Notes under the pieces: generated by a model | Told to the model about the DNA's origin: nothing | The model's database searches: none | Seen by the model: only the letters and a program-made list of their open reading frames with translations | Source: Hyphomicrobiales bacterium | GTDB lineage: Bacteria; Pseudomonadota; Alphaproteobacteria; Rhizobiales; Aestuariivirgaceae | Direction: 5' to 3' | Length of the DNA stretch: 21,219 nt | Assembly: GCA_014380505.1 (NCBI GenBank) | Contig: JACMJT010000003.1 | Location: 1-21,219, forward strand | Part shown: piece after piece, positions 629-15,541 of the stretch | Layout of the letters: each line of letters opens with the position of its first letter | How positions within the stretch are numbered: position 1 is the stretch's first letter | Made by a program: the position numbers and the translations under genes

Positions 629-2218
629 TTATTCGACCCAGATCTCAAATGCCACTGGCAGGACGTTACGTATGTTGGGACGAGCGTTCATGAAGGCCAG
701 CAGCAGCACCGTATCGGCACACGCCGGTGCGGTGCTGTGCACGACCATATCCACGATACGCCGGTCATCAGCGGTGTATTCGCGCCATGATCCCAGCAAA
801 AATGGCTGCATCTCGTAAAGGATGCTGTGGGAATAGGCGGATTCCTGCGCCAGTTGCGCCGGATAGACCAACCGGATGCCGAAGGTTCCGCCACCGGGCG
901 CGCCACCTGTGAAGACGATTTTTGCGGCGAGACCGTATTCCAGATCCGCGCTCTTGAACCCAGCAAGTCGGTCGATCACACCAATTTCGGCGGCCTCATC
1001 CTTGCCAAGGGGGGCGGCGATCAGCCGCAGCATGTTCTCCGCTCCCTCCACCGTCGCAAGTGGACGCCCTTCGAACGGGCGGGTGTTTCGCCAGGGCTGC
1101 CGACGGGCTCGGTCGACTTTTCCGAGCAATTCAGCCAGCGAGTGCGCCTCGCTCGAACAACCGGCCTGCTCGAATATGGCCAAGGCCTCGTTAAAATAGT
1201 TCCGCCAGCCGGGGATATCGTCGAGCAGGGCGGGAAAGGCGACCACATCCTCATGGTAGACCACTTCTTCGTTGCCGCGATTCAGCCGCAACACGTCAAA
1301 CATGGTGGATATGCGGTTCTCGGTGTGGAAACGGGCAAACTCGGGCAGATAGGGAATCCCCGACTTCATCAGCAGGGCATAGGTCAGCAACCGCCACTCG
1401 GGCCGATCCGTGCGAATCGCCTCTTGGAGTGCCAGTAAGTTGGCGTGCATTTGGGGCCAATGGGCCCCAACCCGTAGATGTTCATAGCCAGCGCCAACGG
1501 AATCGAGGCTGACGTAATAGCTGACCCTCTCCTTCCCCTTGAGCCAGCGCATATGCTTGTGCAGCAAGGTGCCGTTGGTGGTGATGCGCAGCCGCACCGA
1601 GGCCAGTTCCGGGTCGGCGCAGAATTTGCGCATGAAGTTCAACGCACTGGGGATGGCGAAGGGCTCGCCACCAATACACTCCACTTGAAGCATGGATAGA
1701 AAATCGTCGCGGCACCGCTCGAACAGGTCGTCGGGGAGAGCGGTCCGCCATTGGTCGCGCCAAGGCACCTGATAGCAGAAGGTACAGGAAAGGTTGCAGC
1801 CCCAACTGAAATAGAAGGCTGCCCGCAAGGGCTTGGAGGCCGGACGAACCTCCCCTCGCTGGAAGTCGTCGCGCACAAGCGTCAGATTGGCGAGCTGGCG
1901 ATCGGACAACGTGGCTTCAGTGGGTACGATGTCGAAGTAAGATTGCGGGTGGGGGCGGGCGTCGATGGAATAGGGGCAGGTTCCGCAGCCGTCCACATGG
2001 GTGCCACCGGCCTGGAATCCGCGCAGCGCTTCCAGGCCCGCACCTTTGTAGATCTCGCCGAGAGTATGCAGATCGCCATTCGGAGCGAAGGCGTTGAGGC
2101 GGTTGCCCAGGTAAAAGCAGCAGCACGATGTCCAATTATCGGCGGATGACATGTAGACATCAGTCCAGGGGGCACTGCACCCGGTCCGCAATTCCAGTGA
2201 AGGCCGATCAGGAGTCAT
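629..2218 (-). CDS. Radical SAM enzyme with N-terminal SPASM-like cysteine module (paralogue 1)
   Basis: The 529-residue product has the radical SAM cluster motif CNLSCTFC at Cys141/145/148 and a GGEP motif at 183-186, so it should bind a [4Fe-4S] cluster and cleave SAM. Ahead of the core it carries Cys14-x-x-Pro-Trp, a Cys32-33-34 run, LGEIYKG and Cys78-x-x-Cys81. This is the spacing pattern of a SPASM auxiliary-cluster domain, which normally follows the core. Residues from about 420 form an extra, probably beta-rich domain shared with the paralogue at 10518. The start at 2218 is preferred over 2287 because GGGGGA lies 5 nt upstream and because it aligns with the paralogue; it overlaps the upstream gene by 11 bp, suggesting translational coupling. 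The substrate is unknown. A sugar or nucleotide-sugar is suggested by context, and a peptide is possible, but I see no precursor peptide gene. Confidence 0.85.
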   Translation of the reverse strand: MTPDRPSLELRTGCSAPWTDVYMSSADNWTSCCCFYLGNRLNAFAPNGDLHTLGEIYKGAGLEALRGFQAGGTHVDGCGTCPYSIDARPHPQSYFDIVPTEATLSDRQLANLTLVRDDFQRGEVRPASKPLRAAFYFSWGCNLSCTFCYQVPWRDQWRTALPDDLFERCRDDFLSMLQVECIGGEPFAIPSALNFMRKFCADPELASVRLRITTNGTLLHKHMRWLKGKERVSYYVSLDSVGAGYEHLRVGAHWPQMHANLLALQEAIRTDRPEWRLLTYALLMKSGIPYLPEFARFHTENRISTMFDVLRLNRGNEEVVYHEDVVAFPALLDDIPGWRNYFNEALAIFEQAGCSSEAHSLAELLGKVDRARRQPWRNTRPFEGRPLATVEGAENMLRLIAAPLGKDEAAEIGVIDRLAGFKSADLEYGLAAKIVFTGGAPGGGTFGIRLVYPAQLAQESAYSHSILYEMQPFLLGSWREYTADDRRIVDMVVHSTAPACADTVLLLAFMNARPNIRNVLPVAFEIWVE

Positions 2219-3629
2219 TCCGTTCCCCCATTCCTTGGGACGCTGCCATGGCGCCCTGCGGCCACAGCACGGACCGCTCCGCCCCATCGCGATATTTTAT
2301 TAAGCCGCGAGGCGTTCCCACGGCCAAGGGGTCATCATAGACCCATCGGCCAATCATAGATGCCTCCTCCGGTCTAGGATTGGCGATCAAGGACATGGCC
2401 GCCCGCTGGGCTTCCGAGCGGGATAGTGGAGGCTGGCCCGAGCCGCAGAAGGCTAATGCCTGTTGTTGTAACCGTGATATTTCCTTGGTTTGCCAATCAG
2501 GCAATATGACCTCTCCCAGGATTGGTTTGCTGTCCGGTCCATAGCCAACCAGAGGTCCGAATGGCGAAGCGCAAAGGGACTCGAATACTTCGCGACTACG
2601 CACAAACGGCTTGGCCAACCACGAAGGAGCTCCAAGATGGGCGAGAAAACCCGCTGCATCACCGCCCCCGCTTCGCAGCATCCATAATATCCCTGGGGTC
2701 GTCAGCAAATAAGCGCCCGCAAGGCGAACATTAATGCCTTCTATTTGGAGAATTGACGCCAGTGCCCGCTGGATACTTCCGGCGTAACCAACATCCACCA
2801 TAAGCAGTTGCCCGCCGTCCAGTGCCCGTTGTTCTCTGAGATGGTTGAGAATCGACAGTCTGATGGACCGACAATGGGTCTCTAGTGCTTTTTTGGCACC
2901 AGCCTCTGTCACCCAATCCAGAAATTTGGGCAACGAATCAGGCTGCAATATCTGAGTTGGGTTCAATCCACGCGGCAAGGTCTCGCCAACAAGGCCTAGA
3001 CCTTCGAGCGCTTCCGCCACGCTGGCTGGCTGTCCACGAGCGCGGACCAACAGATTAACCAGCCCCTCGCGATCCTCTGCCGAATGGATTGCACCAGCCA
3101 GGCAAAGGCGGCGCCCCAGCCAAACCTCACCTACGGGAGAACCGGGGCGCACGGCTTGCAGCGCAGAGGCGAGAACACCACCATCTCTCATGACGCCAAC
3201 GATGGCTTGCCCTTGAACGAACGGGAGTTGCCAGACCCAATGGGCAAAGGCTGAAAGAATCGGCCCGAACCGGTAGAAGCCATAAGCGGCGGGAAGGTCT
3301 TCCGAACACTCCAGCGGAGAGGGCGTCAGAATGACGGGAACCGGCACGGCCTCATCCTCCTCACCATCAACAATTTCCGCCTCGACGGCCGCGGCCTGAG
3401 AGGTGTCTGCGCGGACGATGGTTGGACAAAGTAGATCGTAGGGAACCGCTCCAGGCAATCCAGCCACATAGGCTCTGCACTCGGCGAAAACCTCGGGAGT
3501 TATGGTATCTGCGAGCCATCCGCGTCGTACAAATTCCCGACCGATTGCTTCAAAATGTCCCAAGAGTGGTTCCCAGCATGCGTTACCGAAATTGCTATAG
3601 GGCAGAGGCAGCAAACCAAGGGGCGGCAT
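2208..3629 (-). CDS. Protein resembling the C-terminal half of COG5610-type HAD proteins
   Basis: The 473-residue product lacks the catalytic HAD motifs but matches the region that follows the HAD domain in COG5610-type proteins of polysaccharide loci. Examples are YGFYRFGPILSAFAHWVWQ (116-134), VMRDGGVL (146-153), GRRLCLA (172-178) and VDVGYAGSIQRAL (278-290), which correspond to the usual GP-x-L, F-x-x-RDG and VDIGW-x-G-x-x-Q segments. The function of this domain is not known to me; a role in glycan assembly is inferred from context. It is the middle gene of the minus-strand operon, overlapping the TPR-like gene by 35 bp and the radical SAM gene by 11 bp. The ATG at 3629 has no clear Shine-Dalgarno sequence, so it may rely on coupling, or the true start may be slightly downstream. 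The matching HAD half is encoded at 14537. Confidence 0.7.
   Translation of the reverse strand: MPPLGLLPLPYSNFGNACWEPLLGHFEAIGREFVRRGWLADTITPEVFAECRAYVAGLPGAVPYDLLCPTIVRADTSQAAAVEAEIVDGEEDEAVPVPVILTPSPLECSEDLPAAYGFYRFGPILSAFAHWVWQLPFVQGQAIVGVMRDGGVLASALQAVRPGSPVGEVWLGRRLCLAGAIHSAEDREGLVNLLVRARGQPASVAEALEGLGLVGETLPRGLNPTQILQPDSLPKFLDWVTEAGAKKALETHCRSIRLSILNHLREQRALDGGQLLMVDVGYAGSIQRALASILQIEGINVRLAGAYLLTTPGILWMLRSGGGDAAGFLAHLGAPSWLAKPFVRSREVFESLCASPFGPLVGYGPDSKPILGEVILPDWQTKEISRLQQQALAFCGSGQPPLSRSEAQRAAMSLIANPRPEEASMIGRWVYDDPLAVGTPRGLIKYRDGAERSVLWPQGAMAASQGMGERNDS
2224..2229 (-). promoter_or_regulatory. Ribosome binding site for radical SAM gene starting at 2218
   Basis: On the minus strand, GGGGGA stands 5 nt before the ATG at 2218, inside the 3' end of the upstream gene. 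It decides for this start over the longer open frame beginning at 2287. Confidence 0.5.
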
Positions 3630-4545
3630 AGGGGCGCAGCCGGTCGAAATAGGCAGCTAATTCCGGGGACTGCGCTGCCAGATCGCACCGCATCGCCTTG
3701 GCTTCAGCACGGCGCCCGGCGGCGGCAAGGCAGGCGGCGCGATTGCCCAGCACTAGGGCGTCCTCTAGGCAGCAGGCTTGGGCCTGATCGCTCAGCTCAA
3801 GCGCCCGCGCGTGATCCCCCGACAGGGCGGCGGCGATCCCTTGCCAACTGATCACGCCGGCCCGTTCGGTCTCATCGCATGGAGTTGCGAGAGCCGCCGC
3901 GAGAAAGGCCTCAGCCTCAGCCACGCGGCCAGCAATAAGAGCGGCGGTGGCGGCAAGGCGGTCCGTGGGTGGGCAACGCCCCGTGGCGAGGCCCGTCCGA
4001 CTGGCAATCAGCCCAAGGGCTTCCTCTGCGCGGCCAGTGACCATCATGACTTGGGCCAATGTCCAGATGGCGGTGCTGCCGGGATCACTCGCCAACGCGC
4101 GGCGCGCCAATTCCTCTGCTTTGGCATCGGCGCCGGCGATAAGCACCTGAGAAATCATGCCGGTTAATCCGCGGGTATCGCTTGGCTTGGCATTTAAAAT
4201 GAATTCCACCAAAGCCAACGCTTCGTCCCTCAGGCCGCTCGTCCAGAAGCAAAAGGCCGCGCGGCATAGAGATTCAGCCGCGTCACCGCTGTCCCAAGGC
4301 AGATGAGGGGCAAATTGGAACAGGCGGCGCAACTCGGCCTGATCGCCGCACCTGGCAGCCATGTCCGCCATGACGAACCACGATACCGCCAAGTTGGCAG
4401 GCATGGCGGGCTTGCCGAGCCCGGTGAGTTCGGACCATTGTGCGCCGGCCCGGTTTGCATCTTCCTCGCGGCCAAGCACTCTAAAAGCCCAGCATTGCGC
4501 TGCAAGAGACAGGGAAAGGAACCTGTCGAGAACAGGATGCGTCAT
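3595..4545 (-). CDS. TPR-like helical-repeat protein
   Basis: The 316-residue product consists of repeated pairs of amphipathic helices with TPR spacing, for example KAEELARRALASDPGSTAIWTLA, EEALGLIASR, AEAEAFLAAAL and HARALELSDQAQ, each rich in Ala and Leu at packing positions. No signal peptide, membrane segment or catalytic motif is visible. TPR proteins act as protein-binding scaffolds, so a role in holding the operon's enzymes or their protein substrate is plausible but inferred. It is the first gene of the minus-strand operon, divergent from the OGT-like gene. The TPR region of that OGT is similar in style but not closely related in sequence. The start ATG at 4545 has only a weak upstream purine stretch. 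Confidence 0.75.
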   Translation of the reverse strand: MTHPVLDRFLSLSLAAQCWAFRVLGREEDANRAGAQWSELTGLGKPAMPANLAVSWFVMADMAARCGDQAELRRLFQFAPHLPWDSGDAAESLCRAAFCFWTSGLRDEALALVEFILNAKPSDTRGLTGMISQVLIAGADAKAEELARRALASDPGSTAIWTLAQVMMVTGRAEEALGLIASRTGLATGRCPPTDRLAATAALIAGRVAEAEAFLAAALATPCDETERAGVISWQGIAAALSGDHARALELSDQAQACCLEDALVLGNRAACLAAAGRRAEAKAMRCDLAAQSPELAAYFDRLRPYAAPWFAASAL

Positions 4546-4572
4546 CTCAATGGATTTCCGACCTTTTTTTCT

Positions 4573-4602
4573 ATGGTAAATGATTAGTCATCGCGGTGTT
4601 AA
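4573..4602 (-). promoter_or_regulatory. Candidate sigma-70-type promoter for the minus-strand operon
   Basis: Within the 113-bp AT-rich divergent spacer, the minus strand reads TTAACA (4602-4597), an 18-nt gap, then TACCAT (4578-4573). This is 5/6 and 4/6 agreement with the -35 and -10 consensus. It lies about 30 bp before the ATG at 4545. No equally good promoter was seen for the plus-strand gene. Short matches of this kind occur by chance, so this is only a candidate. Confidence 0.25.
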
Positions 4603-4648
4603 TATTTCGTTTACGCTCGCTGTCTAAAGGTAGTGCTTGCTGGGTCCT

Positions 4649-4654
4649 AGAGGT
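4649..4654 (+). promoter_or_regulatory. Ribosome binding site for the OGT-like gene
   Basis: AGAGGT lies 4 nt before the ATG at 4659. It favours that start over the in-frame ATG at 4596, which has no such signal and would add 21 residues unlike the family. Confidence 0.55.
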
Positions 4655-4658
4655 AGCA

Positions 4659-6908
4659 ATGTGTGCTGAGCGGCTATTCGATGAGGCGGTGGCGGCAGTC
4701 CAAGCTGGCGATTTGAAGCGATGCGCCGAGCGGCTCGACGTTCTGCTGGCCAACCATCCCGATCATGGCGAAGGATTGCGCCTGGGCGGGAAGCTGGCGC
4801 TGATATCCAATGATCTCCAACGCGGCCAAGCGCTACTTTGGCGCGCTGCCGACATCCTGCCCGCCCAATGCGAAATATTGTTCGAGTTGGGCGTGGCTTT
4901 GTTGCAGGGCGGCGACTATGACGAGGCCGCCACCTTGTTTCGTCGCCAATTGACCGCCATTCCCGGCCATCCCGGGGCGTTGTTCAATCTTGCCTGGGCC
5001 TTGCGCCGCACCGGGCACCACGGCCAGGCCGGTGAGGTGCTGGAACAATTGGTGGCGGCCCATCCCGGCCACGGCGAAGCCTGGTTCAACCCGGGCAATG
5101 CCCGCATGGATCTGGGGCGTTGGGCCGATGCCTCCGAGGCCTTCGAGCGGGCGCTTCCCTTGCGTGCGGACAAGGCTGACGTACTGCTCAATCTAGGCTT
5201 GGCCCGGTTGCGCCAGGGACAGCCCCATGAGGCGCGGCGCTGTCTGAACCAAGTGGAACAACCGCATCGGAGCGGTGGGCGGGGGCTGAGCTTCGAGGGC
5301 GAAATTCAAGCTTTGACCGGCAACGAGGCGGTGGCCCTGGAGCTGTTCACCCGTGCCGAGGCAGCCGAGCCCCAGCTCGCCCAACCCGCCTTACGCCGCG
5401 CGCAGATGTTGCAGGCGTTGCGGCGGCATGACGAGGCAATGGAGGTGTTGCGCGCGGCCATGGACCGCATGCCGGCAGAAGCGGTTTTGCTGGCCGAAGC
5501 CGCCTCATTTGCCCTGCGGTTCAAGACTTCCGGCGAGGCCCGGCGGCTGGCCGAGAAGGCCTTGGCAATCGATCCCAATTGTTGGGCCGCCCATGATCTC
5601 ATCGGCCGTGATGCGGCGCTTCAAGGCCGTTACCGCGAGGCCGAAGCTGCCTTCCGCACGGTTCTGGAACTGGTGCCCTATCGTCATGATGCCCACAGCA
5701 ATTTGCTATTTTTGATGCTGCTCGACGATTACTCCACGCCTGAAGCGGTTTATGCCGAGCATGCGGCGTTCGGCCGCAATTGGGGCAGCCGGATGACACC
5801 TCTGCCGGCGCGGCGTCCCATGCCAGAAGACAAGGGGCGTCGGTTGCGCGTGGGCTATGTTTCGGCGGACTTTTCCAACCATGCCGTGGCGCTGTTCTTC
5901 GAGCCATTGCTGGAGGCGCATGATCGCAACCGCTTCGAAATCTTTTGTTATCACGTCCGCCGCGAAGTGGACCATGTTACCGCCCGCCTGAAGGCAAAGG
6001 TCGAGCACTGGCGGGAGGTGCCGCTGGGCGAATCGCCCGAGCAGACGGCACAAGCCATCCGCAGCGATGGCATCGACGTTCTGTTCGACCTGTCCGGCCA
6101 CACGGCGGGCAATGTCCTGCCCGTCTTCGCCCTGCGTCCGGCGCCGGTGCAATTGACGGGGCTGGGATACCAGGGGACCACGGGCCTGGATTGTTTTGCC
6201 GGCCGGGTGGTGGCCGGGCCGTCGGCAAAGCTGGCCGATGAGCAGGCCTTTTCCTCGGAGAAGGTGTTTCGTATCGGCCAATTCCCGTTCCAGACCATCA
6301 GCGATGCGCCCGAGGTAGTGCCGCCGCCCTGCACCCTTGGACACCCCTTCACCTTCGGCTCCGTCAACAAATTCGCCAAGGTCGGCGAGGGCGTGCGGCG
6401 ATGCTGGGCGCGCATTCTTGCGAAAGTCCCCGGCGCGCGGCTGCTGATTGTTCATCCCGCCGGCGACAGCCCCCAGGCCATCGCCGAGGTGCGGGCGTTG
6501 TTCGCCGTTGCGGGTGCCGACCCCACCCGCATTGATTTGGTTGCAGAGAAGTCGTTGGCAGGATGGCTTGAAATGCTCAGCCGCGTCGATGTCACTCTCG
6601 ATCCCTTCCCCTATCTCGGCGGAACCACGACCGAGTTATGCCACTGGATGGGCGTGCCCACCGTGACGCTCAGCCCCACAGCGATGATGGCGGGCAATGA
6701 ATTTGCCAATGGATTAGCCGCCGATGAAGCCACCTACGAAGCCCTGGCCATCCGCACCGCGGCAGATCATGAGGCATTGCTGAACCTGCGGGCCGCATTG
6801 CGGCCCATGACCATGATGCGGAACTGGAGCGCGAGACGGCCCGTGGCGTTCGAACTGGAGAACATCTACCAAAGTTTGTGGATGGACTGGATCAAGACGT
6901 CGTCGTAA
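4659..6908 (+). CDS. TPR plus SPINDLY/O-GlcNAc-transferase-like glycosyltransferase
   Basis: The 749-residue product has about ten TPR units over residues 1-360 followed by a GT41-type catalytic region at 396-749. Family landmarks are RLRVGYVSADFSNH (395-408, with His408 at the catalytic-base position known from OGT), FDLSGHTAGN (486-495), RPAPVQLTGLGYQGTTG (493-509), FGSVNKFAK (566-574, Lys574 at the UDP-binding Lys position) and LDPFPYLGGTTTELCHWMGVPTVTL (647-671). GT41 enzymes transfer a sugar from a nucleotide sugar to Ser/Thr of proteins bound by the TPRs; bacterial members often sit with flagellin or surface-glycan genes. Two usual motifs are altered: the Met-Asp-Tyr segment after GTTG, and the SR-x-x-x-S segment after VTLSP. 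Donor and acceptor are therefore uncertain. It opens the plus-strand series, and its start is set by a good Shine-Dalgarno sequence. Confidence 0.85.
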   Translation: MCAERLFDEAVAAVQAGDLKRCAERLDVLLANHPDHGEGLRLGGKLALISNDLQRGQALLWRAADILPAQCEILFELGVALLQGGDYDEAATLFRRQLTAIPGHPGALFNLAWALRRTGHHGQAGEVLEQLVAAHPGHGEAWFNPGNARMDLGRWADASEAFERALPLRADKADVLLNLGLARLRQGQPHEARRCLNQVEQPHRSGGRGLSFEGEIQALTGNEAVALELFTRAEAAEPQLAQPALRRAQMLQALRRHDEAMEVLRAAMDRMPAEAVLLAEAASFALRFKTSGEARRLAEKALAIDPNCWAAHDLIGRDAALQGRYREAEAAFRTVLELVPYRHDAHSNLLFLMLLDDYSTPEAVYAEHAAFGRNWGSRMTPLPARRPMPEDKGRRLRVGYVSADFSNHAVALFFEPLLEAHDRNRFEIFCYHVRREVDHVTARLKAKVEHWREVPLGESPEQTAQAIRSDGIDVLFDLSGHTAGNVLPVFALRPAPVQLTGLGYQGTTGLDCFAGRVVAGPSAKLADEQAFSSEKVFRIGQFPFQTISDAPEVVPPPCTLGHPFTFGSVNKFAKVGEGVRRCWARILAKVPGARLLIVHPAGDSPQAIAEVRALFAVAGADPTRIDLVAEKSLAGWLEMLSRVDVTLDPFPYLGGTTTELCHWMGVPTVTLSPTAMMAGNEFANGLAADEATYEALAIRTAADHEALLNLRAALRPMTMMRNWSARRPVAFELENIYQSLWMDWIKTSS

Positions 6909-6981
6909 TGAATGACTTTCGAAGCAGGAGATTGTTTGTTAGTAACTAGAGATTAGCCATAGGTGAAATGCTACAGATACA

Positions 6982-6996
6982 GCGCTCAAAGAGCGC
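6982..6996 (+). other. Small perfect hairpin upstream of dehydrogenase gene
   Basis: GCGCTC-AAA-GAGCGC forms a 6-bp GC-rich stem with a 3-nt loop, ending 12 bp before the dehydrogenase ATG, in the 100-bp gap after the OGT-like gene. There is no T-run after it, so it is not a classical terminator. It could affect translation initiation or mRNA stability. The rest of the gap shows no convincing promoter. Confidence 0.35.
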
Positions 6997-7008
6997 CGGT
7001 AGGACGAA

Positions 7009-8370
7009 ATGCAGAATGCAATGAAAATCTCGGTCATAGGCCTGGGCAAACTGGGCGCCCCCTTAGCTGCGGTCTTCGCCGCCAAGGGTCACGAGGTCAT
7101 CGGCGTCGACCTCAATTCCAACTTCGTTGACAAGATCAATGGCGGCATCGCACCGGTAGACGAGCCCCAATTGCAGGACATGATCGACCAGGGCCGCGAG
7201 CGGTTGCGCGCGACCACGTCCTTCGAGGCCGCCGTGCTGGCCTCGGACATCACCTGCGTCATCGTCCCGACCCCCAGCAACGAGCAGGGCATCTTCACCA
7301 ACAGTTATGTGCTATCCGCCATGGAAGCCCTGGGCCCTGGCCTGCGGGCCAAGGCCGGCTATCACGTGGTGGTGATCACCAGCACCGTGATGCCCGGTTC
7401 GTGCGACGGAGAAATCCGGGCGGCGCTGGAACAGTCCTCGGGCCGGCGCATCGGCATCAATCTTGGCCTGTGCTACAGCCCCGAATTCATCGCGCTCGGC
7501 AGCGTCGTCCATAATCTGCTCAATCCCGACATGGTGCTGATCGGCGAATCGGACCGTCGCGCCGGCGACCATCTTTCCGAACTGCTGCTGTCCAGTGCGG
7601 CCAATAAGCCGCCGGTGCAGCGCATGAATCTGGTCAATGCCGAGCTGACCAAGATTTCGGTCAACACTTATGTCACCACCAAAATTTCCTACGCCAACAT
7701 GCTGTCGGACATCTGCGACCGCCTGCCGGGCGCCGATGTGGACGTGGTGACCACTGCCTTGGGTCTGGACACCCGCATCGGCCGCAAATACCTGCGCGGC
7801 GCCACCGGTTACGGCGGCCCCTGCTTCCCGCGCGACAATGTGGCATTCAGCGTCATGGCCCGCGCGGTGGGCGCTTCGCCCCTGCTGGCCGAAGCGACCG
7901 ACGCCATCAACAACTACCAGCCCGACCGCTTGGCCGACATGGTTCGCCGCCATTGTGCGCCGGGCGCCGTAATTGCCGTGCTTGGTCTTTCGTACAAGCC
8001 CGATACCGGCGTGATCGAGGAAAGCCACGGCATCAAGCTGGTGCTGAAGCTGACCGAAGGCGGCATGCGCGCGGTATGTCATGACCCCAAGGCGGGGCCT
8101 GGAGCCCAGGCCGTGCTGGGTGACCGCGCCGTGGTGGTCGATGATGCGGCGGCGGCGGTGCGGCAGGCCGATTTGGTGGTGGTGATGACCCCCTGGCCCG
8201 AATACGCCACTGTGGCGGTCGAGAATTTCCAGCGTGCCGATGCGCCTTTGGTGGTGATCGATCCGTGGCGGATCATGTCTGAAGATGTCATGGACGCGGC
8301 CACCATCATCTATCCCGGCCGCTTCCGCGCCGGAACCGAACCCGCCGTGCAAATTGCCGCCAACGCCTGA
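7009..8370 (+). CDS. Nucleotide-sugar dehydrogenase (UDP-glucose/GDP-mannose dehydrogenase family)
   Basis: The product, 453 residues, oxidises C6 of a nucleotide sugar to the carboxylate in two NAD-dependent steps, most likely UDP-glucose to UDP-glucuronate. The N-terminal Rossmann domain has GLGKLG (11-16) and an acidic strand end (GVDLN). The central part has the VPTPS loop (87-90), SPEF (157-160) and LTKISVNTY. The catalytic Cys272 lies in GYGGPCFPRDN. The C-terminal UDP-binding domain has LGLSYKPDTGVIEES. Length and domain order are normal. Whether the substrate is UDP-glucose, UDP-GlcNAc or GDP-mannose cannot be fixed from these motifs. AGGA at 7001 supports the ATG at 7009; a second ATG at 7021 is also possible. 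The epimerase follows after 15 bp, so the two are surely cotranscribed. Confidence 0.9.
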   Translation: MQNAMKISVIGLGKLGAPLAAVFAAKGHEVIGVDLNSNFVDKINGGIAPVDEPQLQDMIDQGRERLRATTSFEAAVLASDITCVIVPTPSNEQGIFTNSYVLSAMEALGPGLRAKAGYHVVVITSTVMPGSCDGEIRAALEQSSGRRIGINLGLCYSPEFIALGSVVHNLLNPDMVLIGESDRRAGDHLSELLLSSAANKPPVQRMNLVNAELTKISVNTYVTTKISYANMLSDICDRLPGADVDVVTTALGLDTRIGRKYLRGATGYGGPCFPRDNVAFSVMARAVGASPLLAEATDAINNYQPDRLADMVRRHCAPGAVIAVLGLSYKPDTGVIEESHGIKLVLKLTEGGMRAVCHDPKAGPGAQAVLGDRAVVVDDAAAAVRQADLVVVMTPWPEYATVAVENFQRADAPLVVIDPWRIMSEDVMDAATIIYPGRFRAGTEPAVQIAANA

Positions 8371-8385
8371 GACGGAGCATCTCCA

Positions 8386-9402
8386 ATGATGAAAAGTGTT
8401 GATGTGAACGATACCGTTTTGGTGGCCGGTGCCGGCGGCTTCATCGGCGGCTGGCTGGTGGGGCGGCTGTTGGAAAACGGCGTGCGCAACATCCGCGCGG
8501 TCGATATCAAACCGGTGGCAGAATGGTTTCAAATATTCCCTCAGGCGGATAATCGCCAGTTGGATTTGCGCGAAAACGCTGCGGCGCTCGAAGCGGTCGC
8601 GGGCGTCAACCGGGTGACCAATCTGGCCTGCGACATGGGCGGCATGGGGTTCATCGAGAACCACAAAGCTGAATGCATGATCTCGGTGCTGATCAACACG
8701 CATCTGCTAATGGCTGCGCGTGGCCAAGACATCAAAAGCTTTTTTTATTCCTCCTCGGCCTGCGTCTATAACGGCGACAAGCAGAAGGACGCCGATGTAG
8801 TGGCGTTGCGCGAGGAAGATGCCTATCCGGCGGCGCCCGAGGACGGCTATGGTTGGGAGAAGCTGTTCTCCGAGCGCATGTGCCGCCACTTCCGCGAAGA
8901 TTTCGGCATCCCCACCCGCATCGCCCGCTTCCACAACGTCTATGGTCCGCACGGCACTTATGATGGCGGACGCGAAAAGGCTCCGGCGGCCATCTGCCGC
9001 AAGGTCATCGAGGCCAAGATGTCGGGCAAGCACGAGATAGAAATCTGGGGCGACGGCGAACAGACCCGCAGCTTCATGTTCATCGAAGATTGCCTGCACG
9101 GCATCGATTTGATCACCGCCAGCGACATCATTGACCCGTTGAATTTGGGCTCGGCGGAATTGGTCAGCATCAATCAGTTGGTGGACATCGTCGAAGGCAT
9201 CGCCGGCATTACCTTGAAACGCAGCTATAACCTAGACGCCCCAAAGGGCGTACGCGGGCGCAATTCGGACAATGCCATGATCCAGCGCCTGCTGGGCTGG
9301 GCGCCGTCCACCCCGCTCCAAACCGGCATGGAGCAGACCTATCGCTGGATTTGGGACCAGTTATCGCTGCCCGCCGCGCAGCAGCGGGCAGCCTATAAAT
9401 AA
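8386..9402 (+). CDS. GDP-mannose 3,5-epimerase-like SDR protein
   Basis: The 338-residue product is an extended short-chain dehydrogenase with the NAD-binding motif GAGGFIG (15-21). It closely follows the plant GDP-mannose 3,5-epimerase pattern: CDMGGMGFI (82-90), SSACVY, FHNVYGPHGTYDGGREKAPAA, WGDGEQTRSFMFIEDC and GVRGRNSDN. The known catalytic residues of the Arabidopsis enzyme, Cys145, Tyr174, Lys178 and Lys217, are all matched at a constant offset of 19: Cys126, Tyr155, Lys159 and Lys198. That enzyme converts GDP-D-mannose to GDP-L-galactose or GDP-L-gulose. In a bacterium this would feed a polysaccharide or glycan rather than vitamin C (inference). GGAG at 8374 sets the start. A different but related nucleotide-sugar epimerization remains possible. 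Confidence 0.85.
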   Translation: MMKSVDVNDTVLVAGAGGFIGGWLVGRLLENGVRNIRAVDIKPVAEWFQIFPQADNRQLDLRENAAALEAVAGVNRVTNLACDMGGMGFIENHKAECMISVLINTHLLMAARGQDIKSFFYSSSACVYNGDKQKDADVVALREEDAYPAAPEDGYGWEKLFSERMCRHFREDFGIPTRIARFHNVYGPHGTYDGGREKAPAAICRKVIEAKMSGKHEIEIWGDGEQTRSFMFIEDCLHGIDLITASDIIDPLNLGSAELVSINQLVDIVEGIAGITLKRSYNLDAPKGVRGRNSDNAMIQRLLGWAPSTPLQTGMEQTYRWIWDQLSLPAAQQRAAYK

Positions 9403-9447
9403 GGGCGGGCGAAGCTCTCGTTGCCGGATTTTCTCAAATCGCACCAT

Positions 9448-9452
9448 GAGGG
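9448..9452 (+). promoter_or_regulatory. Ribosome binding site for FkbM-type methyltransferase
   Basis: GAGGG lies 7 nt before the ATG at 9460. It favours that start over the in-frame TTG at 9421, whose upstream region is poor. Confidence 0.5.
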
Positions 9453-9459
9453 CGCCATC

Positions 9460-10500
9460 ATGGCCATGACTAATTTCAACCGCAATCCGGTCTTCACCGA
9501 ACGCTTGGTGCGGGATCGGGTCATGCGCGATTTCCCAATGATGTTGTTCGATGTCGGGTGTTCGGGCGGCCTGGACTTCACATGGACCCGGTTGGGCGAC
9601 GATTTGCGCGCCATCGGCTTCGATCCATTGGTGGCAGAGATCGACCGGCTGAACGGCTTGGCGCCCGCCAATCATCTGTTCGAAGCGGCTTTCGTCGGCT
9701 CGCAGCCCTATCGGCAGAAACATGATCCCAATGATTGGTGGGCATTGAGCGCCCGCAATAATCAGCCCTTTCCGCGAACCAGCGCTCCTTGGGCGACCGA
9801 CATCCTTCAGATGGACTGGACCAAGGAGGCCTATAACGCCAACGCCGAGGTGTGCTTCAGCGAGCGGCTGATATCGCTGGACGATTATTGCGCCGAGAAA
9901 TCCATCGCAGATCTGGATTTCATCAAGATCGACACCGACGGTTCTGATTTCGAGGTCCTGACAGGTGCCGAACACATCCTCAATACGGGCCGGGTGTTGG
10001 GCGTGCAGGTCGAGGCCCAGTTCCACGGTGCCGTTGACCGTGAAGCCAATCTGTTCTCCAACATCGACACCTTGTTGCGGGAAAAAGGCTTTACACTGTT
10101 CGACATGGATCTGTGGCGTTATTCACGCGCCAATCTGCCGCGCCGCTTCTTCTACGACATCCCGGCCCAGACCCAGAAGGGTCAGGTGTTATGGGGCGAG
10201 GCGCTTTACCTACGTGACTTTGGCGATGCTGACTACGAACGGAAATGGCAACAGGACAGCTGGCCAGTGGCCAAGTTGATCAAGCTGGCCGCCCTTTTCG
10301 ACCTGTATGGCCTGCCCGATTGCGCGCTGGAATTGCTGGAAAAATACTGCGATGTCCTGACTGCCGGCAATTATCCCGTGGACGAGTGGACACAATGTCT
10401 GGTGCCGCCGATCAACGGGCAGACAGTAACGCTTGCCCAATACCGGGCTCATTGCGAAGATCTGGTGCGCCAGAAACGTTATAAAGACCTGCCGCTTTAA
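9460..10500 (+). CDS. FkbM-family SAM-dependent methyltransferase
   Basis: The 346-residue product has the SAM-binding motif FDVGCSGG (30-37), followed by GFDP at the end of the second strand, and the FkbM signature RLISLDDYC then DFIKIDTDGSDFEVLTGA (153-170) and VEAQF (184-188). FkbM-type enzymes usually methylate hydroxyl groups, often on sugars of surface glycans or macrolides. Residues beyond about 240 form a helical extension not needed for the fold. The start at 9460 is preferred over a TTG at 9421. It sits between the epimerase (57 bp upstream) and the second radical SAM gene (17 bp downstream), which suggests action on the same glycan. The acceptor cannot be read from sequence. Confidence 0.8.
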   Translation: MAMTNFNRNPVFTERLVRDRVMRDFPMMLFDVGCSGGLDFTWTRLGDDLRAIGFDPLVAEIDRLNGLAPANHLFEAAFVGSQPYRQKHDPNDWWALSARNNQPFPRTSAPWATDILQMDWTKEAYNANAEVCFSERLISLDDYCAEKSIADLDFIKIDTDGSDFEVLTGAEHILNTGRVLGVQVEAQFHGAVDREANLFSNIDTLLREKGFTLFDMDLWRYSRANLPRRFFYDIPAQTQKGQVLWGEALYLRDFGDADYERKWQQDSWPVAKLIKLAALFDLYGLPDCALELLEKYCDVLTAGNYPVDEWTQCLVPPINGQTVTLAQYRAHCEDLVRQKRYKDLPL

Positions 10501-10501
10501 C

Positions 10502-10508
10502 GGAGAGG
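10502..10508 (+). promoter_or_regulatory. Ribosome binding site deciding the start of radical SAM paralogue 2
   Basis: GGAGAGG runs directly into an ATG at 10509 but stands 9 nt before the in-frame ATG at 10518. The same CGGAGAGG block precedes the glycosyltransferase gene at 12111. The 10518 start is therefore preferred. Confidence 0.5.
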
Positions 10509-10517
10509 ATGACTGCC

Positions 10518-12086
10518 ATGCGTTGCCCCGTTCCATGGTATGAGTTGTACATTTCCGCTCCTCAGAACCGTATCAGCACCTGCTGTTACTATGGCGGGCC
10601 GACCATTGACCTGAATGAGGTGACGTCGAACGGCAAAGAGGTCGAAGCGGTTTGGGGCGACCCGAAGATAAAAGCGATCCGCAAGTTGCAAAGCAACGCA
10701 GCCGATGACGGGGAAAACGGCTGTTCGAAATGTCACTTCTTCCAGAAGCGCCCTGACCGCACTGAAGATACCTATGTGAACTTCAAGGCGTGGCTGGCCG
10801 CCGATTTGTCGCCAAAACAGCGCGCCAATCTAGAGCTGGCCAAGCATGATTTCGAGCACGGGGTGGTAGAGACTGCGGCGCGTCCCTTGCGCTATTTCCT
10901 GCTGTTCGGGTTCCACTGCAACATCGACTGCATCATGTGCGTACAGATTCCCGGCCGCAAAAAGCAGGAACAGGAATTGTCCTGGGACCTACTGAAGAAA
11001 TGGTGGCCGGGTTTCGACTCCGCCCTCAGCGTCGATGTCATTGGCGGCGAGCCTTTCGCCATTCCCTCGGCCATCCGTTTCATCCGCGAATTCGTCGCCG
11101 ACGAGTCCCTGCAACCGGTGAAGCTAAACCTGTTCACCAATGGCACGGTCGTTCACAAGCATCTCGAGCTGTTGAAGCGAAAGCGCCGTCTTGGCTTTTC
11201 GATCAGCCTCGACAGCATTGGCGAAGGTTACGAGACCATCCGTTGCGGCTCGAAATGGGAGCGGCTTAGGGAAAACCTTTTGACCCTGCGCACCTTGATC
11301 GACACCACCCACCCGGAATGGCACATGGGAACCAGCGCCCTGATGATGAAGGCGGCGGTGCCCTATTTGGCCGATTACGCCCGCTTCCATGTGGAAAACC
11401 GCATTTCGACAGTGTTTCATACCCTCACCGTTTCGCGCGGGATCGAGGAAAGTGTTTATCGCGACGATATCATCAGCTACCCGCTGCTGCTGCGGGGCGT
11501 TCCCAATTGGCGGCAGCATTTCGATGATGCCATTGCTATCTTCGAAGCGCACGATCGCCCCAGTGAGACCGCGCTATTGATCATGTTCCGCGATCGCTGC
11601 GCCGAGGGGATTGCCCAACTGGCAGGGCTCTTCGTCGAAAGCCGTGACATGCCGCTGGTGGTTGCCGAAGGGGCGGGCGTCCTGGACGCCCAAGACCGCG
11701 AGTTCGGATATAATAACGGTGCGGTGACGCGGAACGATGCGGGGGTCTTCAGCTTCCCTGCCAACCACATTCACCAAGCACATTTCCTGCGCTTCGCCCC
11801 GGCCGAGCCGCCGACGGACGGAATCCTGCGTGTGCGCATGTGGTGGGCCGACGAGGCGCCCAGCCTAAACGACACTGCTTGCGACATCACCTTCGACGAA
11901 CAGCCCAATTATCGTCTGCTGTGCTGGGACGAAGGCACCGATCAGCGTGGCCGTTTCAAGGAATTGACCATCATGCGATGCGACGGCGCGGCCTCGGCCG
12001 AATTCGAGATCACCCTGCGCGCCGCCCGTGTCGGTTTGCGAACCGTATTCCCCACCGCCCTGACTGCCTTTGGGACGGGCCGATGA
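10518..12086 (+). CDS. Radical SAM enzyme with N-terminal SPASM-like cysteine module (paralogue 2)
   Basis: The 522-residue product is a paralogue of the minus-strand gene at 629-2218. It starts almost at once with Cys3-x-x-Pro-Trp, then Cys22-Cys23, VWGDPKIKAIR and Cys69-x-x-Cys72, the cysteine layout of a SPASM domain but placed before the core. The radical SAM motif is CNIDCIMC at Cys134/138/141 and GGEP lies at 176-179. Shared blocks with the paralogue include GGEPFAIPSA, TNGT-x-x-HKH, SLDS-x-G-x-GYE and ARFH-x-ENRIST. The C-terminal 130 residues or so form a likely beta-sandwich ending in R-T-V-F-P, again shared. It precedes the large glycosyltransferase by 24 bp. A radical modification of a glycan or its precursor is inferred from the neighbours; the reaction is unknown. 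Confidence 0.85.
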   Translation: MRCPVPWYELYISAPQNRISTCCYYGGPTIDLNEVTSNGKEVEAVWGDPKIKAIRKLQSNAADDGENGCSKCHFFQKRPDRTEDTYVNFKAWLAADLSPKQRANLELAKHDFEHGVVETAARPLRYFLLFGFHCNIDCIMCVQIPGRKKQEQELSWDLLKKWWPGFDSALSVDVIGGEPFAIPSAIRFIREFVADESLQPVKLNLFTNGTVVHKHLELLKRKRRLGFSISLDSIGEGYETIRCGSKWERLRENLLTLRTLIDTTHPEWHMGTSALMMKAAVPYLADYARFHVENRISTVFHTLTVSRGIEESVYRDDIISYPLLLRGVPNWRQHFDDAIAIFEAHDRPSETALLIMFRDRCAEGIAQLAGLFVESRDMPLVVAEGAGVLDAQDREFGYNNGAVTRNDAGVFSFPANHIHQAHFLRFAPAEPPTDGILRVRMWWADEAPSLNDTACDITFDEQPNYRLLCWDEGTDQRGRFKELTIMRCDGAASAEFEITLRAARVGLRTVFPTALTAFGTGR

Positions 12087-12110: not shown

Positions 12111-12290
12111 ATGCTGTCGCTGGTGCTCTATGGTCGCAACGATACGCACGGCTATAACCTGCATAAGCGGGCGGCCATCAGCCTGAACTGCATGGCGCAA
12201 ATGCTGGTCGACGACGATGATGAAATCATCTTCGTCGATTACAACACGCCCGACGATCTGCCGACCTTTCCCGAAGCCATCCGCGACACC
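12111..12290 (+). repeat. Conserved 5' segment shared with the gene at 15362
   Basis: The first 180 nt of this gene and of the one at 15362 differ at only 19 positions by my count, including a 42-nt perfect match (12165-12206 with 15416-15457). The 60 encoded residues differ at 6 positions. Similarity drops sharply further into the genes. Confidence 0.8.
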
Positions 12291-14540
12291 TTGACGCCAC
12301 GGGCGCGGCGCTTCCTGCGCATCCTGCGCGTCCGTCCCGCCGATCACGAGCCGTGGCGCCACCTGACGCATTTACAGGTCTGCGAGACGGTCGCCCGCAA
12401 CGCGGGCATCCGGCGGGCCAATGGGGCCAATCCCTGGATTTTGTCCACCAATACGGACATGATTTTCGTGCCCCGCCAGTCTGACCGAAGCCTGACGGAC
12501 ATGGTTGACGGGCTGCCCGCCCGCTGCCACCACCTGCCGCGTTTCGAGCTTCCCCAAACCCTATGGGAAGAATTCGACCGCGCCGATCCCGCTGCCATCA
12601 TGGCCCATCTCGGGGAATTTGGGTCGCGGTTGCATCTGGACGAGATCGTGCACGGCAGCGATCCGGCTCGGTTCGACAATCACGGCGACTTCCAATTGTT
12701 GCCGCGCGCCGCGCTGGCGGCGATCAACGGTTTCGACGAACGCATGCTCAATGGCTGGATCGTCGATAGCAACATGGCGCGGCGGATGATGCTGCATCTC
12801 GGTCCGCCCGCATCTTTGGATGCCGACCTTGCCGGCTATCATTGCGATCACACCCGCATCGGCGGCGTGTTTCATGGCCGCGACCATTTGGAAAACGACT
12901 ACCGCCGCTTCTACGAATGGGTCGAGCGCGCGGACTTGCCCCATCAGGCATCATCGTGGGGGCTAGCCGAGCGGGAAATCGAGGAAATCCGTCTTGCCGA
13001 GCGTCCCCCCGGCCTGACCCGGCTGCTTGCCGCTGTGCTGCCGCCGCCAACGGGGCAGGCGGTCGTTTCGAACAATCGCCCGGATTTGCCGGACGTTTCC
13101 GCTTATTCGCCGGAGCATGCTGTTCCGTTCATCGCCGATCTGCTTGCCACCCTGCCGAGAAACGCCCGCATCGCCTGGTTCGGCACCCGGCCGCGTTTGC
13201 TGGAGTTGATGGTCGCCATTCATGGGGCCATGGGGTTTACCGTTCCCCTCGTGGTGGCCGCCGAATGCGGTCTCGCCGTCGCCGGAACACATAACGTCCC
13301 TGCCGCGGTGGCCTTGGCCGAGGCCGATGCGGATATGGTGATCTTCGAATTCGGCCGCGCCACCCAGGACGCGGCGCTCGATGGTGACGAGACCGGTTGG
13401 AGCAATGCCGATCTTGATGCGGTGGCGCCGGTGCGCGCGGGTTTCTTGGCCATGGTTGAACTGGAACGGAAGGCCATTGCTGGTGGGGCTCGCCCTCGCC
13501 CCGTGGTGACAGTCAACGCCATTCATAACCGGTTTGAGCCCTTGGTCCACGAGACCCTGTCAGTCGCCCGCTCGCCCTTCAGCAGCCGCGTCCGTCACGG
13601 TGCGGTGCGCCCTGATAGCTCGCCGCTGTTGCGGCTTAGCGCGGTGGATTTGGGGCCATGGCTGCAACGGCGCATGGGCCGGCCACAGCCCGTGCCGGTC
13701 ACCGAGGCGGTGCGCCTTCTGACCTTGGCCCAGCTTCTGCTGAGCGACGAGGGCACTCCCGAGCAGTTTCTTTTGGCCTGCCGGGCGGCTGAGGCCATGC
13801 TGGCGGTACTCGAATTCCCCCCTGTGGCGGCACTGGGTTCCGCCGCCATGCTGCGCGACCGTATCCAAAGCGAGCGTGGGGCGACCCGATTCCGCGATCG
13901 GCTTCGCCTGCCGCTTACGGACGCAATCCCATCGCCGATGGACGCCCCTTGCCGGTTGGCTTGCGCCGAAGATTGGGAGGCTTCTGACTGGATTGCGCCG
14001 GCCCGCAAGTTCCTGGGCGGCGCCTTTGCGGGCAATCTGTTCCGCCGTTCCACTGCAATCTGGGTGGCGGGGCAAATCTTGGCCATCGCCGGACGCGAGG
14101 GCACCTTCGGCCCCGGCAAGCGAGCATTGCTGTCCCCTGGCGCGCCGGAATGCCTGCCGGAAATCCTCAGCGAGCACATGGCGGATATCCATGTCCTGGC
14201 CGGGCCGCAGCCGCGCCCGGTCTCAGCCGTTATGCGGGTGCCGTCGCGCCTGGACCTGTCGCGCTCAGCCCCCGATAACGGCCTTTACCACCTGATCCAA
14301 CTGGACGATTGGGCTGCCTTGGCTGATGCCGCCCCCCGATTGTCGCCCGGCGGATTGCTGGTGGTGGTGGCGCCGGTTGCCCTCGACGCCGCCCTGCAGC
14401 CCCACATTCAAGCTGACAGTTTTGGGCTGGAGATTCTCCCCGCAGCGCCCATGGAAGTGACCCGCACCACCCTGGATCTTATGGTCGGGAATGACATGGT
14501 CCTGCCGGCCACCTGGTTCTTCCGCCGGAGCCGGGGATGA
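12111..14540 (+). CDS. Large three-part glycosyltransferase (GT-A domain, unknown middle, methyltransferase-like C-terminus), copy 1
   Basis: The 809-residue product begins with a GT-A fold of about 290 residues: a first strand SLVLYGRND, NTPDDLPTF, then the DxD-like LSTNTDMIF (Asp116), NGFDERM-x-NGW-x-VDSN (206-221) and GYHCDHTR (242-249). The last two resemble the acceptor/base loop and the metal-site His of GT2/GT7-type transferases. Residues about 325-500 form a domain I do not recognise, with IFEFG and an NAIHN-x-FE segment. Residues about 610-809 look like a degenerate Rossmann methyltransferase, keeping only SPGGLLVVVAP; the glycine-rich SAM motif is absent. GGAGAGGGG stands 5 nt before the ATG. 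The gene overlaps the HAD gene by 4 bp (ATGA). Transfer of a sugar to a surface glycan is inferred; donor and linkage are unknown. Confidence 0.75.
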   Translation: MLSLVLYGRNDTHGYNLHKRAAISLNCMAQMLVDDDDEIIFVDYNTPDDLPTFPEAIRDTLTPRARRFLRILRVRPADHEPWRHLTHLQVCETVARNAGIRRANGANPWILSTNTDMIFVPRQSDRSLTDMVDGLPARCHHLPRFELPQTLWEEFDRADPAAIMAHLGEFGSRLHLDEIVHGSDPARFDNHGDFQLLPRAALAAINGFDERMLNGWIVDSNMARRMMLHLGPPASLDADLAGYHCDHTRIGGVFHGRDHLENDYRRFYEWVERADLPHQASSWGLAEREIEEIRLAERPPGLTRLLAAVLPPPTGQAVVSNNRPDLPDVSAYSPEHAVPFIADLLATLPRNARIAWFGTRPRLLELMVAIHGAMGFTVPLVVAAECGLAVAGTHNVPAAVALAEADADMVIFEFGRATQDAALDGDETGWSNADLDAVAPVRAGFLAMVELERKAIAGGARPRPVVTVNAIHNRFEPLVHETLSVARSPFSSRVRHGAVRPDSSPLLRLSAVDLGPWLQRRMGRPQPVPVTEAVRLLTLAQLLLSDEGTPEQFLLACRAAEAMLAVLEFPPVAALGSAAMLRDRIQSERGATRFRDRLRLPLTDAIPSPMDAPCRLACAEDWEASDWIAPARKFLGGAFAGNLFRRSTAIWVAGQILAIAGREGTFGPGKRALLSPGAPECLPEILSEHMADIHVLAGPQPRPVSAVMRVPSRLDLSRSAPDNGLYHLIQLDDWAALADAAPRLSPGGLLVVVAPVALDAALQPHIQADSFGLEILPAAPMEVTRTTLDLMVGNDMVLPATWFFRRSRG

Positions 14541-15361: not shown

Positions 15362-15541
15362 ATGCTGTCGATCATCGTTTACGGTCGCAACGATTCGCAC
15401 GGCTATAACCTGCACAAGCGGGCGGCCATCAGCCTGAACTGCATGGCGCAAATGCTGACCGATGACGACGATGAGATCATCTTCGTCGATTACAACACCC
15501 CCGATGACCTGCCGACCTTTCCCGAAGCCATCCAAGACACC
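15362..15541 (+). repeat. Conserved 5' segment shared with the gene at 12111
   Basis: This is the second copy of the 180-nt segment described at 12111. It begins exactly at the start codon, and the similarity does not extend into the upstream gap. Confidence 0.8.

What the first reader, a model, noticed from the sequence alone, without database searches (positions are those of the whole stretch)
629..12086. Two paralogous radical SAM enzymes with the SPASM-like module before the core
Both the 629-2218 and 10518-12086 products have C-x-x-P-W, a Cys pair and C-x-x-C, in SPASM order and spacing, ahead of the CxxxCxxC core. In known SPASM enzymes this module follows the core. Both also share an extra C-terminal, likely beta-rich domain. 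I know no named family with this architecture. Because the genes lie in a glycan locus with no visible precursor peptide, a sugar or lipid-linked glycan substrate is more likely than a RiPP. That assignment is inference.
Basis: partly seen in the sequence, partly recalled or inferred. Interest (0 to 1): 0.72.

Follow-up and report, generated by a model that had tools for sequence, protein, structure and literature searches.

The report
Radical enzymes with front-mounted iron-sulfur module
Two related radical SAM enzymes in a bacterial sugar-coat gene cluster carry their extra iron-sulfur module at the front of the protein instead of the back, an arrangement already known to annotators but with no function assigned that we could find, and they probably make radical changes to a surface glycan.

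Summary
rSAM1 lies on the MINUS strand (629-2218), rSAM2 on the plus strand (10518-12086). Both have C-x18-CC-x43/45-CxxC before the CxxxCxxC core; these cysteines are kept in 27 of 27 aligned proteins. The module is a twitch (one cluster expected), not a full SPASM. The same module sits after the core in another radical SAM protein of a related Azospirillum locus. "No named family" is wrong: NCBIfam NF033640, N_Twi_rSAM, has this order. Both window proteins match it below its cutoff (92 and 110 against 170 bits); 10 of 10 viral proteins tested pass it. In a tree the window proteins fall in a separate clade whose long members share a C-terminal domain, modelled in rSAM2 as a beta-sandwich weakly resembling carbohydrate-binding modules. 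Four other loci pair the enzyme with FkbM methyltransferases and the same unclassified glycosyltransferase-like proteins; three also hold the window's sugar-nucleotide genes. Best reading: radical oxidation or epimerisation of a sugar in a surface glycan, the auxiliary cluster exchanging electrons. Architecture is well supported; chemistry and substrate are inference. A new variant of a known but uncharacterised kind.

The parts
629..2218 (-). rSAM1, 529 aa: N-terminal twitch module, radical SAM core, C-terminal domain
   Evidence: start ATG at 2218 overlaps the end of the gene 2208-3629
1976..2179 (-). rSAM1 N-terminal twitch module (C14 to C81)
   Evidence: cysteines invariant 27 of 27; 70.4 bits with the N-terminal profile, of which it is a training row
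1775..1798 (-). rSAM1 core CxxxCxxC (C141-C148)
   Evidence: PF04055 35.0 bits, cutoff 29.5
632..1096 (-). rSAM1 C-terminal domain (about residues 375-529), aligned to that of rSAM2, not folded
10518..12086 (+). rSAM2, 522 aa, same architecture; GGAGAG ahead of the ATG at 10518
10524..10733 (+). rSAM2 N-terminal twitch module (C3 to C72): hairpin E9-13/E18-20, short helices 32-38 and 42-46, helix 49-59, then CxxC
   Evidence: AlphaFold2 model pLDDT 87.5, pTM 0.86; Pfam SPASM spans 3-73 weakly, E 0.14
10917..10940 (+). rSAM2 core CxxxCxxC (C134-C141)
   Evidence: PF04055 27.0 bits, just under its cutoff 29.5
11625..12083 (+). rSAM2 C-terminal beta-sandwich domain (residues 370-522)
9421..10500 (+). 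FkbM-type methyltransferase, directly upstream of rSAM2 (likely true start near 9460)
   Evidence: PF05050 47.4 bits, cutoff 22.7; an FkbM gene is also directly upstream in L001 and L009
7009..8370 (+). nucleotide-sugar dehydrogenase
   Evidence: TIGR03026 329 bits, over its cutoff
8386..9402 (+). GDP-mannose 3,5-epimerase-like enzyme
   Evidence: PDB 8sg0 E 2.4e-86
12111..14540 (+). glycosyltransferase-like protein (my reading), no Pfam or NCBIfam match; conserved partner
15362..18004 (+). paralogue of 12111-14540 (43% over 864 aa)
4596..6908 (+). TPR plus glycosyltransferase family 41 protein
   Evidence: PF13844 104 bits, cutoff 25

Best explanation
Both proteins are radical SAM enzymes in which a twitch auxiliary-cluster module stands before the catalytic barrel, with a further domain (beta-sandwich in the rSAM2 model) at the C-terminus. 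SHOWN: module, order, cysteines, paralogy, cassette. INFERRED: the core cluster cleaves SAM; the 5'-deoxyadenosyl radical takes a hydrogen from a carbon of a sugar in a surface glycan, a glycosylated protein or its activated precursor. The four-cysteine N-terminal [4Fe-4S] cluster takes or gives back the electron (two-electron oxidation as in BtrN, or epimerisation), and the beta-sandwich holds the glycan. The neighbouring FkbM enzyme would methylate the same unit. The two paralogues would act on different positions or residues.
For: Module identity: NF033640 matches module plus core collinearly. Its positions 3-72 match the C-TERMINAL module (432-501) of P0043, a radical SAM protein of a related Azospirillum locus, at 58.8 bits, where Pfam SPASM passes its cutoff (25.5 over 21.5). 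A profile of our N-terminal modules finds the same place at 21.5 bits; the best of 1400 shuffles scores 5.5. Relative P0028 has an N-terminal SPASM domain over the Pfam cutoff (39.0 bits). Fold: hairpin, helix, then CxxC, the canonical twitch elements (PMC6231123, passages). Four cysteine positions as in BtrN, whose Aux cluster is ligated by four cysteines and proposed as electron acceptor (PMC9012708, passages). Glycan side: L001, L002, L003 and L009 all hold the enzyme with FkbM and the 12111/15362-type proteins (in L003 the latter match is partial, E about 1e-11); 3 of 4 also the sugar dehydrogenase and the GDP-mannose 3,5-epimerase-like gene (L002 is only 6.6 kb). C-terminal domain: 30 of 50 listed structural neighbours are carbohydrate-binding modules or domains of carbohydrate-active enzymes by title, MiXBM counted in (my count).
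Confidence: 0.5

Rival explanations
1. The substrate is a protein or peptide, for example the protein glycosylated by the TPR-GT41 enzyme, and the enzymes crosslink or oxidise amino-acid residues as SPASM enzymes of RiPP pathways do.
For: Many characterised SPASM enzymes act in RiPP pathways (PMC9012708, passages). A TPR-GT41 protein lies in the window. SuiB and SkfB are among the structural neighbours.
Against: No gap over about 100 nt between the genes, so little room for a precursor gene (short ORFs not searched); the related loci are rich in sugar-nucleotide and glycan genes; the C-terminal domain resembles carbohydrate-binding folds, weakly.
Confidence: 0.2
2. The N-terminal cysteines form a structural metal site (for example zinc) or a lost cluster site, and the enzyme works as a single-cluster radical SAM enzyme.
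For: Window proteins score under the Pfam SPASM cutoff. L002 has lost C72, though its near-twin P0008 keeps it.
Against: All five module cysteines kept in 27 of 27, with a homologous C-terminal SPASM module in P0043; the cysteine pattern is in 68 of 68 viral relatives.
Confidence: 0.12
3. A free nucleotide or nucleotide sugar is the substrate (viperin-like or BlsE-like) and the glycan is only the later user.
For: Viperin-like enzymes are the best PDB matches by sequence for each window protein and BlsE ties for best by structure.
Against: These matches cover the core alone; the beta-sandwich domain suggests a larger substrate.
Confidence: 0.18

Closest known systems
NCBIfam NF033640, N_Twi_rSAM (twitch domain-containing radical SAM protein)
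   Same: Same order: twitch module in the first 72 model positions, core after it; several copies per locus in 8 of 68 viral loci by my profile.
   Different: Window proteins score 92 and 110 bits against a cutoff of 170 and match only to about position 303 of 398; they branch in a separate clade (100/99) and have an extra C-terminal domain.
BtrN (twitch radical SAM dehydrogenase of butirosin biosynthesis)
   Same: Single Aux cluster ligated by four cysteines in BtrN (PMC9012708 and PMC6231123, passages); four cysteine positions predicted here; sugar-like substrate.
   Different: Twitch follows the core in BtrN; profile match only E 0.34.
SPASM radical SAM enzymes (anSME, SuiB, PqqE)
   Same: The module is a relative of the first half of SPASM.
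   Different: Module before the core; second-cluster cysteines absent.
P0043, radical SAM protein H1Q64_RS32720 in the Azospirillum plasmid locus L009
   Same: Same module type, related glycan locus.
   Different: Module after the core; no N-terminal copy found by the profile.

Membership tests
NF033640 N_Twi_rSAM | twitch module before the radical SAM core | tested here: met
   collinear match, P0001 3-295 to model 5-299; P0002 12-303 to 3-303
NF033640 N_Twi_rSAM | curated score cutoff of 170 bits | tested here: not met
   92.2 and 109.7 bits; best of 10 relatives scanned 152.5; best E among 27 A1 members is the same 1.7e-44
Twitch domain | Cys before a beta-hairpin, Cys after it, helix, then two Cys | tested here: met
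   C3, E9-13/E18-20, C22 C23, H49-59, C69 C72; definition from PMC6231123 passages
Twitch domain | position after the core | tested here: not met
   module residues 3-72, core 134-141
Twitch domain | binds one auxiliary Fe-S cluster | not testable with these tools
   needs protein
SPASM domain (PF13186 and 7-Cys motif) | Pfam gathering score 21.5 | tested here: not met
   P0001 12.9 bits, P0002 not listed up to E 1; relatives P0028 N-term 39.0 and P0043 C-term 25.5 meet it
SPASM domain (PF13186 and 7-Cys motif) | further CX5CX3C-gap-C for the second cluster | tested here: not met
   no Cys between C72 and C134 in P0001, nor between C81 and C141 in P0002
Radical SAM superfamily | CxxxCxxC and GGEP-type motif in a PF04055 domain | tested here: met
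   motifs invariant in A1; PF04055 35.0 bits for rSAM1; rSAM2 27.0 is under the cutoff of 29.5
BtrN-type dehydrogenase | sequence homology beyond the core | tested here: inconclusive
   E 0.34, profile positions 38-72 only

The most novel reading that the evidence does not exclude
Front-mounted twitch enzymes form a large branch of radical SAM biology dedicated to modifying surface glycans in bacteria, with a viral branch as well. Within it, the clade seen here is a carbohydrate-binding, paralogue-paired variant that works with FkbM methyltransferases, and the twitch module has moved between N- and C-terminus among enzymes of one locus type.
Probability: 0.3. Interest if true: 0.75.

Novelty: new variant of a known kind. 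Interest (0 to 1): 0.45.

Why it matters
A 2021 review describes SPASM and twitch domains as C-terminal extensions (PMC9012708, passages). A front-mounted version tests whether the auxiliary cluster needs a fixed place in the chain or only in space. If the substrate is a glycan, the locus is a source of radical sugar chemistry and gives a testable function to N_Twi_rSAM, for which I recognised no functional paper in the listings.

Tried and rejected
Rejected: 'chance cysteines'. Rejected: 'no named family'. Rejected: 'full SPASM with two clusters'. Rejected: recent duplication. In the tree rSAM2 groups with L001a and P0003 (99/95) and rSAM1 with P0022 (100/97), all inside one six-row group (midpoint root, many long branches, warnings printed).

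Weak or negative: tblastn of the short relative P0027 found nothing in 50,697 phage records, although viral contigs hold 68 relatives. FkbM genes lie in 22 of 68 of those viral loci (10 of the 22 were scanned with Pfam and all 10 pass) and in 0 of 80 loci taken by a random 15-base pattern (1.05 against 0.68 Mb). But 21 of the 22 are in one cluster of related enzymes, in all 2 of 13 clusters at 40% identity, mostly 4-8 kb away, so I do not count this as independent support. My N-terminal profile hits 35 of 68 viral loci at i-E below 0.01 and misses 33, while the cysteine pattern is in 68 of 68. The random set itself holds one N-terminal-twitch gene (L091). Genomes: A1 at E 1e-30 matches 1 of 385 genomes of the class, 1 of 43 of the order and 1 of 297 of another order, each time the seed genome itself (only the top 3-4 candidates per genome were scored in the first and third). 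NF033640: 1 of 142 genomes, 0 over cutoff, 0 of 14 controls. A1 in genome contigs gave only 3 loci, with two narrow peptide patterns. The plasmid searches gave one close record. PDB sequence search of the module profile gave nothing significant. VIA ties do not choose a substrate class. The second structure job went to the C-terminal domain, so rSAM1 was not folded. Papers: passages only of PMC9012708, PMC6231123 and PMC10456417 (the last only cites the first); the others were seen as listings.
Full report
WHAT IS THERE. Two paralogous radical SAM genes lie in the window: rSAM1 on the minus strand at 629-2218 (529 aa; the plus strand of that range has 6 stops in frame) and rSAM2 on the plus strand at 10518-12086 (522 aa). 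They are 39% identical over 396 aa, or 34% over 530 aa in a longer alignment. In both, a module C-x2-P-W ... C-C ... C-x2-C precedes the core C-x3-C-x2-C. In an alignment of 27 rows, the two included, every one of these cysteines and the tryptophan is identical in 27 of 27. The spacing is nearly constant: 18-20 positions from the first to the second cysteine, 42-58 onward to the CxxC, 55-64 from there to the core. A regular expression for the whole pattern is met by 30 of 45 proteins held, by 0 of the other 15 (P0030-P0044), and by 0 of 9500 shuffles. One relative outside the alignment, L002, has Trp for the last module Cys; P0008, with an otherwise like module, has the Cys.

WHAT THE MODULE IS. 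It is a twitch. Pfam SPASM aligns over its full length to residues 3-73 of rSAM2 but weakly (E 0.14); 12 of 27 rows reach E 0.1. Stronger evidence comes from three bridges. First, NCBIfam NF033640 (N_Twi_rSAM) aligns collinearly through module and core in both window proteins and matches 27 of 27 rows. Second, P0028, a more distant relative, has an N-terminal SPASM domain over the Pfam cutoff (39.0 bits). Third, in a related locus on an Azospirillum brasilense plasmid (NZ_CP059454) another radical SAM protein, P0043, carries the module AFTER its core: NF033640 positions 3-72 match its residues 432-501 at 58.8 bits, and Pfam SPASM passes there (25.5 over 21.5). A profile built only from our N-terminal modules finds the same stretch at 21.5 bits, the best of 1400 shuffles being 5.5. 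The AlphaFold2 model of rSAM2 (pLDDT 87.5, pTM 0.86) has a hairpin (9-13, 18-20) between C3 and C22/C23, two short helices, and a helix (49-59) before C69-x2-C72. This is the order of ligands and elements described for twitch domains (PMC6231123, passages read). No cysteine follows before the core in either window protein, so the second SPASM cluster cannot be built. Coordinates are not returned by the tool, so I could not measure whether the cysteines cluster beside the barrel. A PDB sequence search with the module profile gave nothing significant (best E 0.059, an unrelated nuclease; BtrN 0.34).

THE ARCHITECTURE IS ALREADY NAMED. Ten viral-contig proteins, scanned out of the 68 found, all exceed its cutoff of 170 bits (230-400 bits). 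The 68 viral loci all show the cysteine pattern before the core (68 of 68). By my profile, which finds the module in only 35 of 68, 8 of 68 carry two to four copies (L010/L011 and L075/L076 are pairs of like loci). The window proteins score 92 and 110 bits, below the cutoff. In a tree of 49 rows they fall in a 32-row clade (100/99) apart from a 17-row group of viral proteins with P0028 and P0029. The 27 long rows in the clade, including both window proteins, form one branch (100/99). Among the 27 A1 proteins, the shorter P0024, P0026 and P0027 lack the C-terminal domain. Long branches and a midpoint root limit this tree. I found no paper on an N-terminal twitch or SPASM: the terms 'N-terminal twitch' with 'radical SAM' and 'N-terminal SPASM' returned none, and the listings gave none that I recognised from titles and openings of abstracts. 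The library lacks most subscription journals.

THE SURROUNDINGS. The window also encodes a TPR-GT41 glycosyltransferase, a nucleotide-sugar dehydrogenase, a GDP-mannose 3,5-epimerase-like enzyme (PDB 8sg0, E 2.4e-86), an FkbM methyltransferase just before rSAM2, two paralogous proteins that I read as glycosyltransferase-like but that match no family, a HAD-like protein (below both curated cutoffs), two methyltransferases and a B12-binding radical SAM protein. tblastn against the four related loci shows the enzyme, FkbM and the unclassified proteins in 4 of 4 (in L003 the last match is partial), and the dehydrogenase and the epimerase in 3 of 4 (L002 is only 6.6 kb). An FkbM gene sits directly before the enzyme on the same strand in the window, L001 and L009 (in L009 that gene resembles the window's only in a short stretch; a closer homologue lies 4.8 kb away), diverges from it in L002, and is about 5 kb away in L003. 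L003 and the window share the B12 radical SAM protein (54%) and a methyltransferase (42%). Two of the three genomes reached through loci hold two copies of the enzyme. In the genomes sampled the enzyme is rare.

HOW IT PROBABLY WORKS. The BtrN twitch cluster is ligated by four cysteines and is proposed as the electron acceptor in a two-electron oxidation of a sugar-like alcohol, whereas the MoaA cluster has three and binds its substrate (PMC9012708, passages). The window module offers five cysteines at the four twitch positions, so a fully ligated, redox-active cluster is the simpler reading. With a glycan locus and a carbohydrate-binding-like domain, I infer hydrogen abstraction from a sugar carbon followed by oxidation or epimerisation, and methylation by the FkbM partner. 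Every chemical step is inference.

VERDICT. The claim of an unnamed architecture fails. What remains new here is a separate clade with an added domain, paralogue pairs and a conserved glycan cassette.

Noticed in passing
L009 1457-3049 (P0043): Radical SAM protein of the Azospirillum locus with the twitch/SPASM module after the core; the best NCBIfam NF033640 stretch is that C-terminal part.
   Followed up: yes
L010, L011, L012, L028, L029, L046, L075, L076: Viral contigs carry two to four N-terminal-twitch radical SAM genes in the stretch fetched; role unknown. One of 80 random viral loci (L091) has one too.
   Followed up: partly
window 12111-14540 and 15362-18004: Paralogous 809 and 880 aa proteins (43% identical) with no Pfam or NCBIfam match, found with the radical SAM genes in four other loci; the N-terminal part looks glycosyltransferase-like to me.
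   Followed up: partly
window 2208-3629, minus strand: 473 aa protein without any family match over a cutoff, overlapping the start of rSAM1; a homologue is in L001.
   Followed up: partly
window 8386-9402: Bacterial GDP-mannose 3,5-epimerase-like protein, an enzyme best known from plants (recalled); conserved in three related loci.
   Followed up: partly
window 20094-21218: B12-binding radical SAM protein running off the window end, 54% identical to one in L003, next to a methyltransferase with a weak match to the corrinoid-associated CpaM family.
   Followed up: no
L001: Contig labelled Stygiobacter (Ignavibacteriota) but carrying much of the same cassette as the window and as Alphaproteobacteria; it may be mis-binned or transferred.
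   Followed up: no
viral loci such as L055, L068, L072, L074: FkbM methyltransferases lie about 4-8 kb from the N-twitch radical SAM gene in most of the 22 of 68 viral loci that have one, 21 of the 22 in one cluster.
   Followed up: partly
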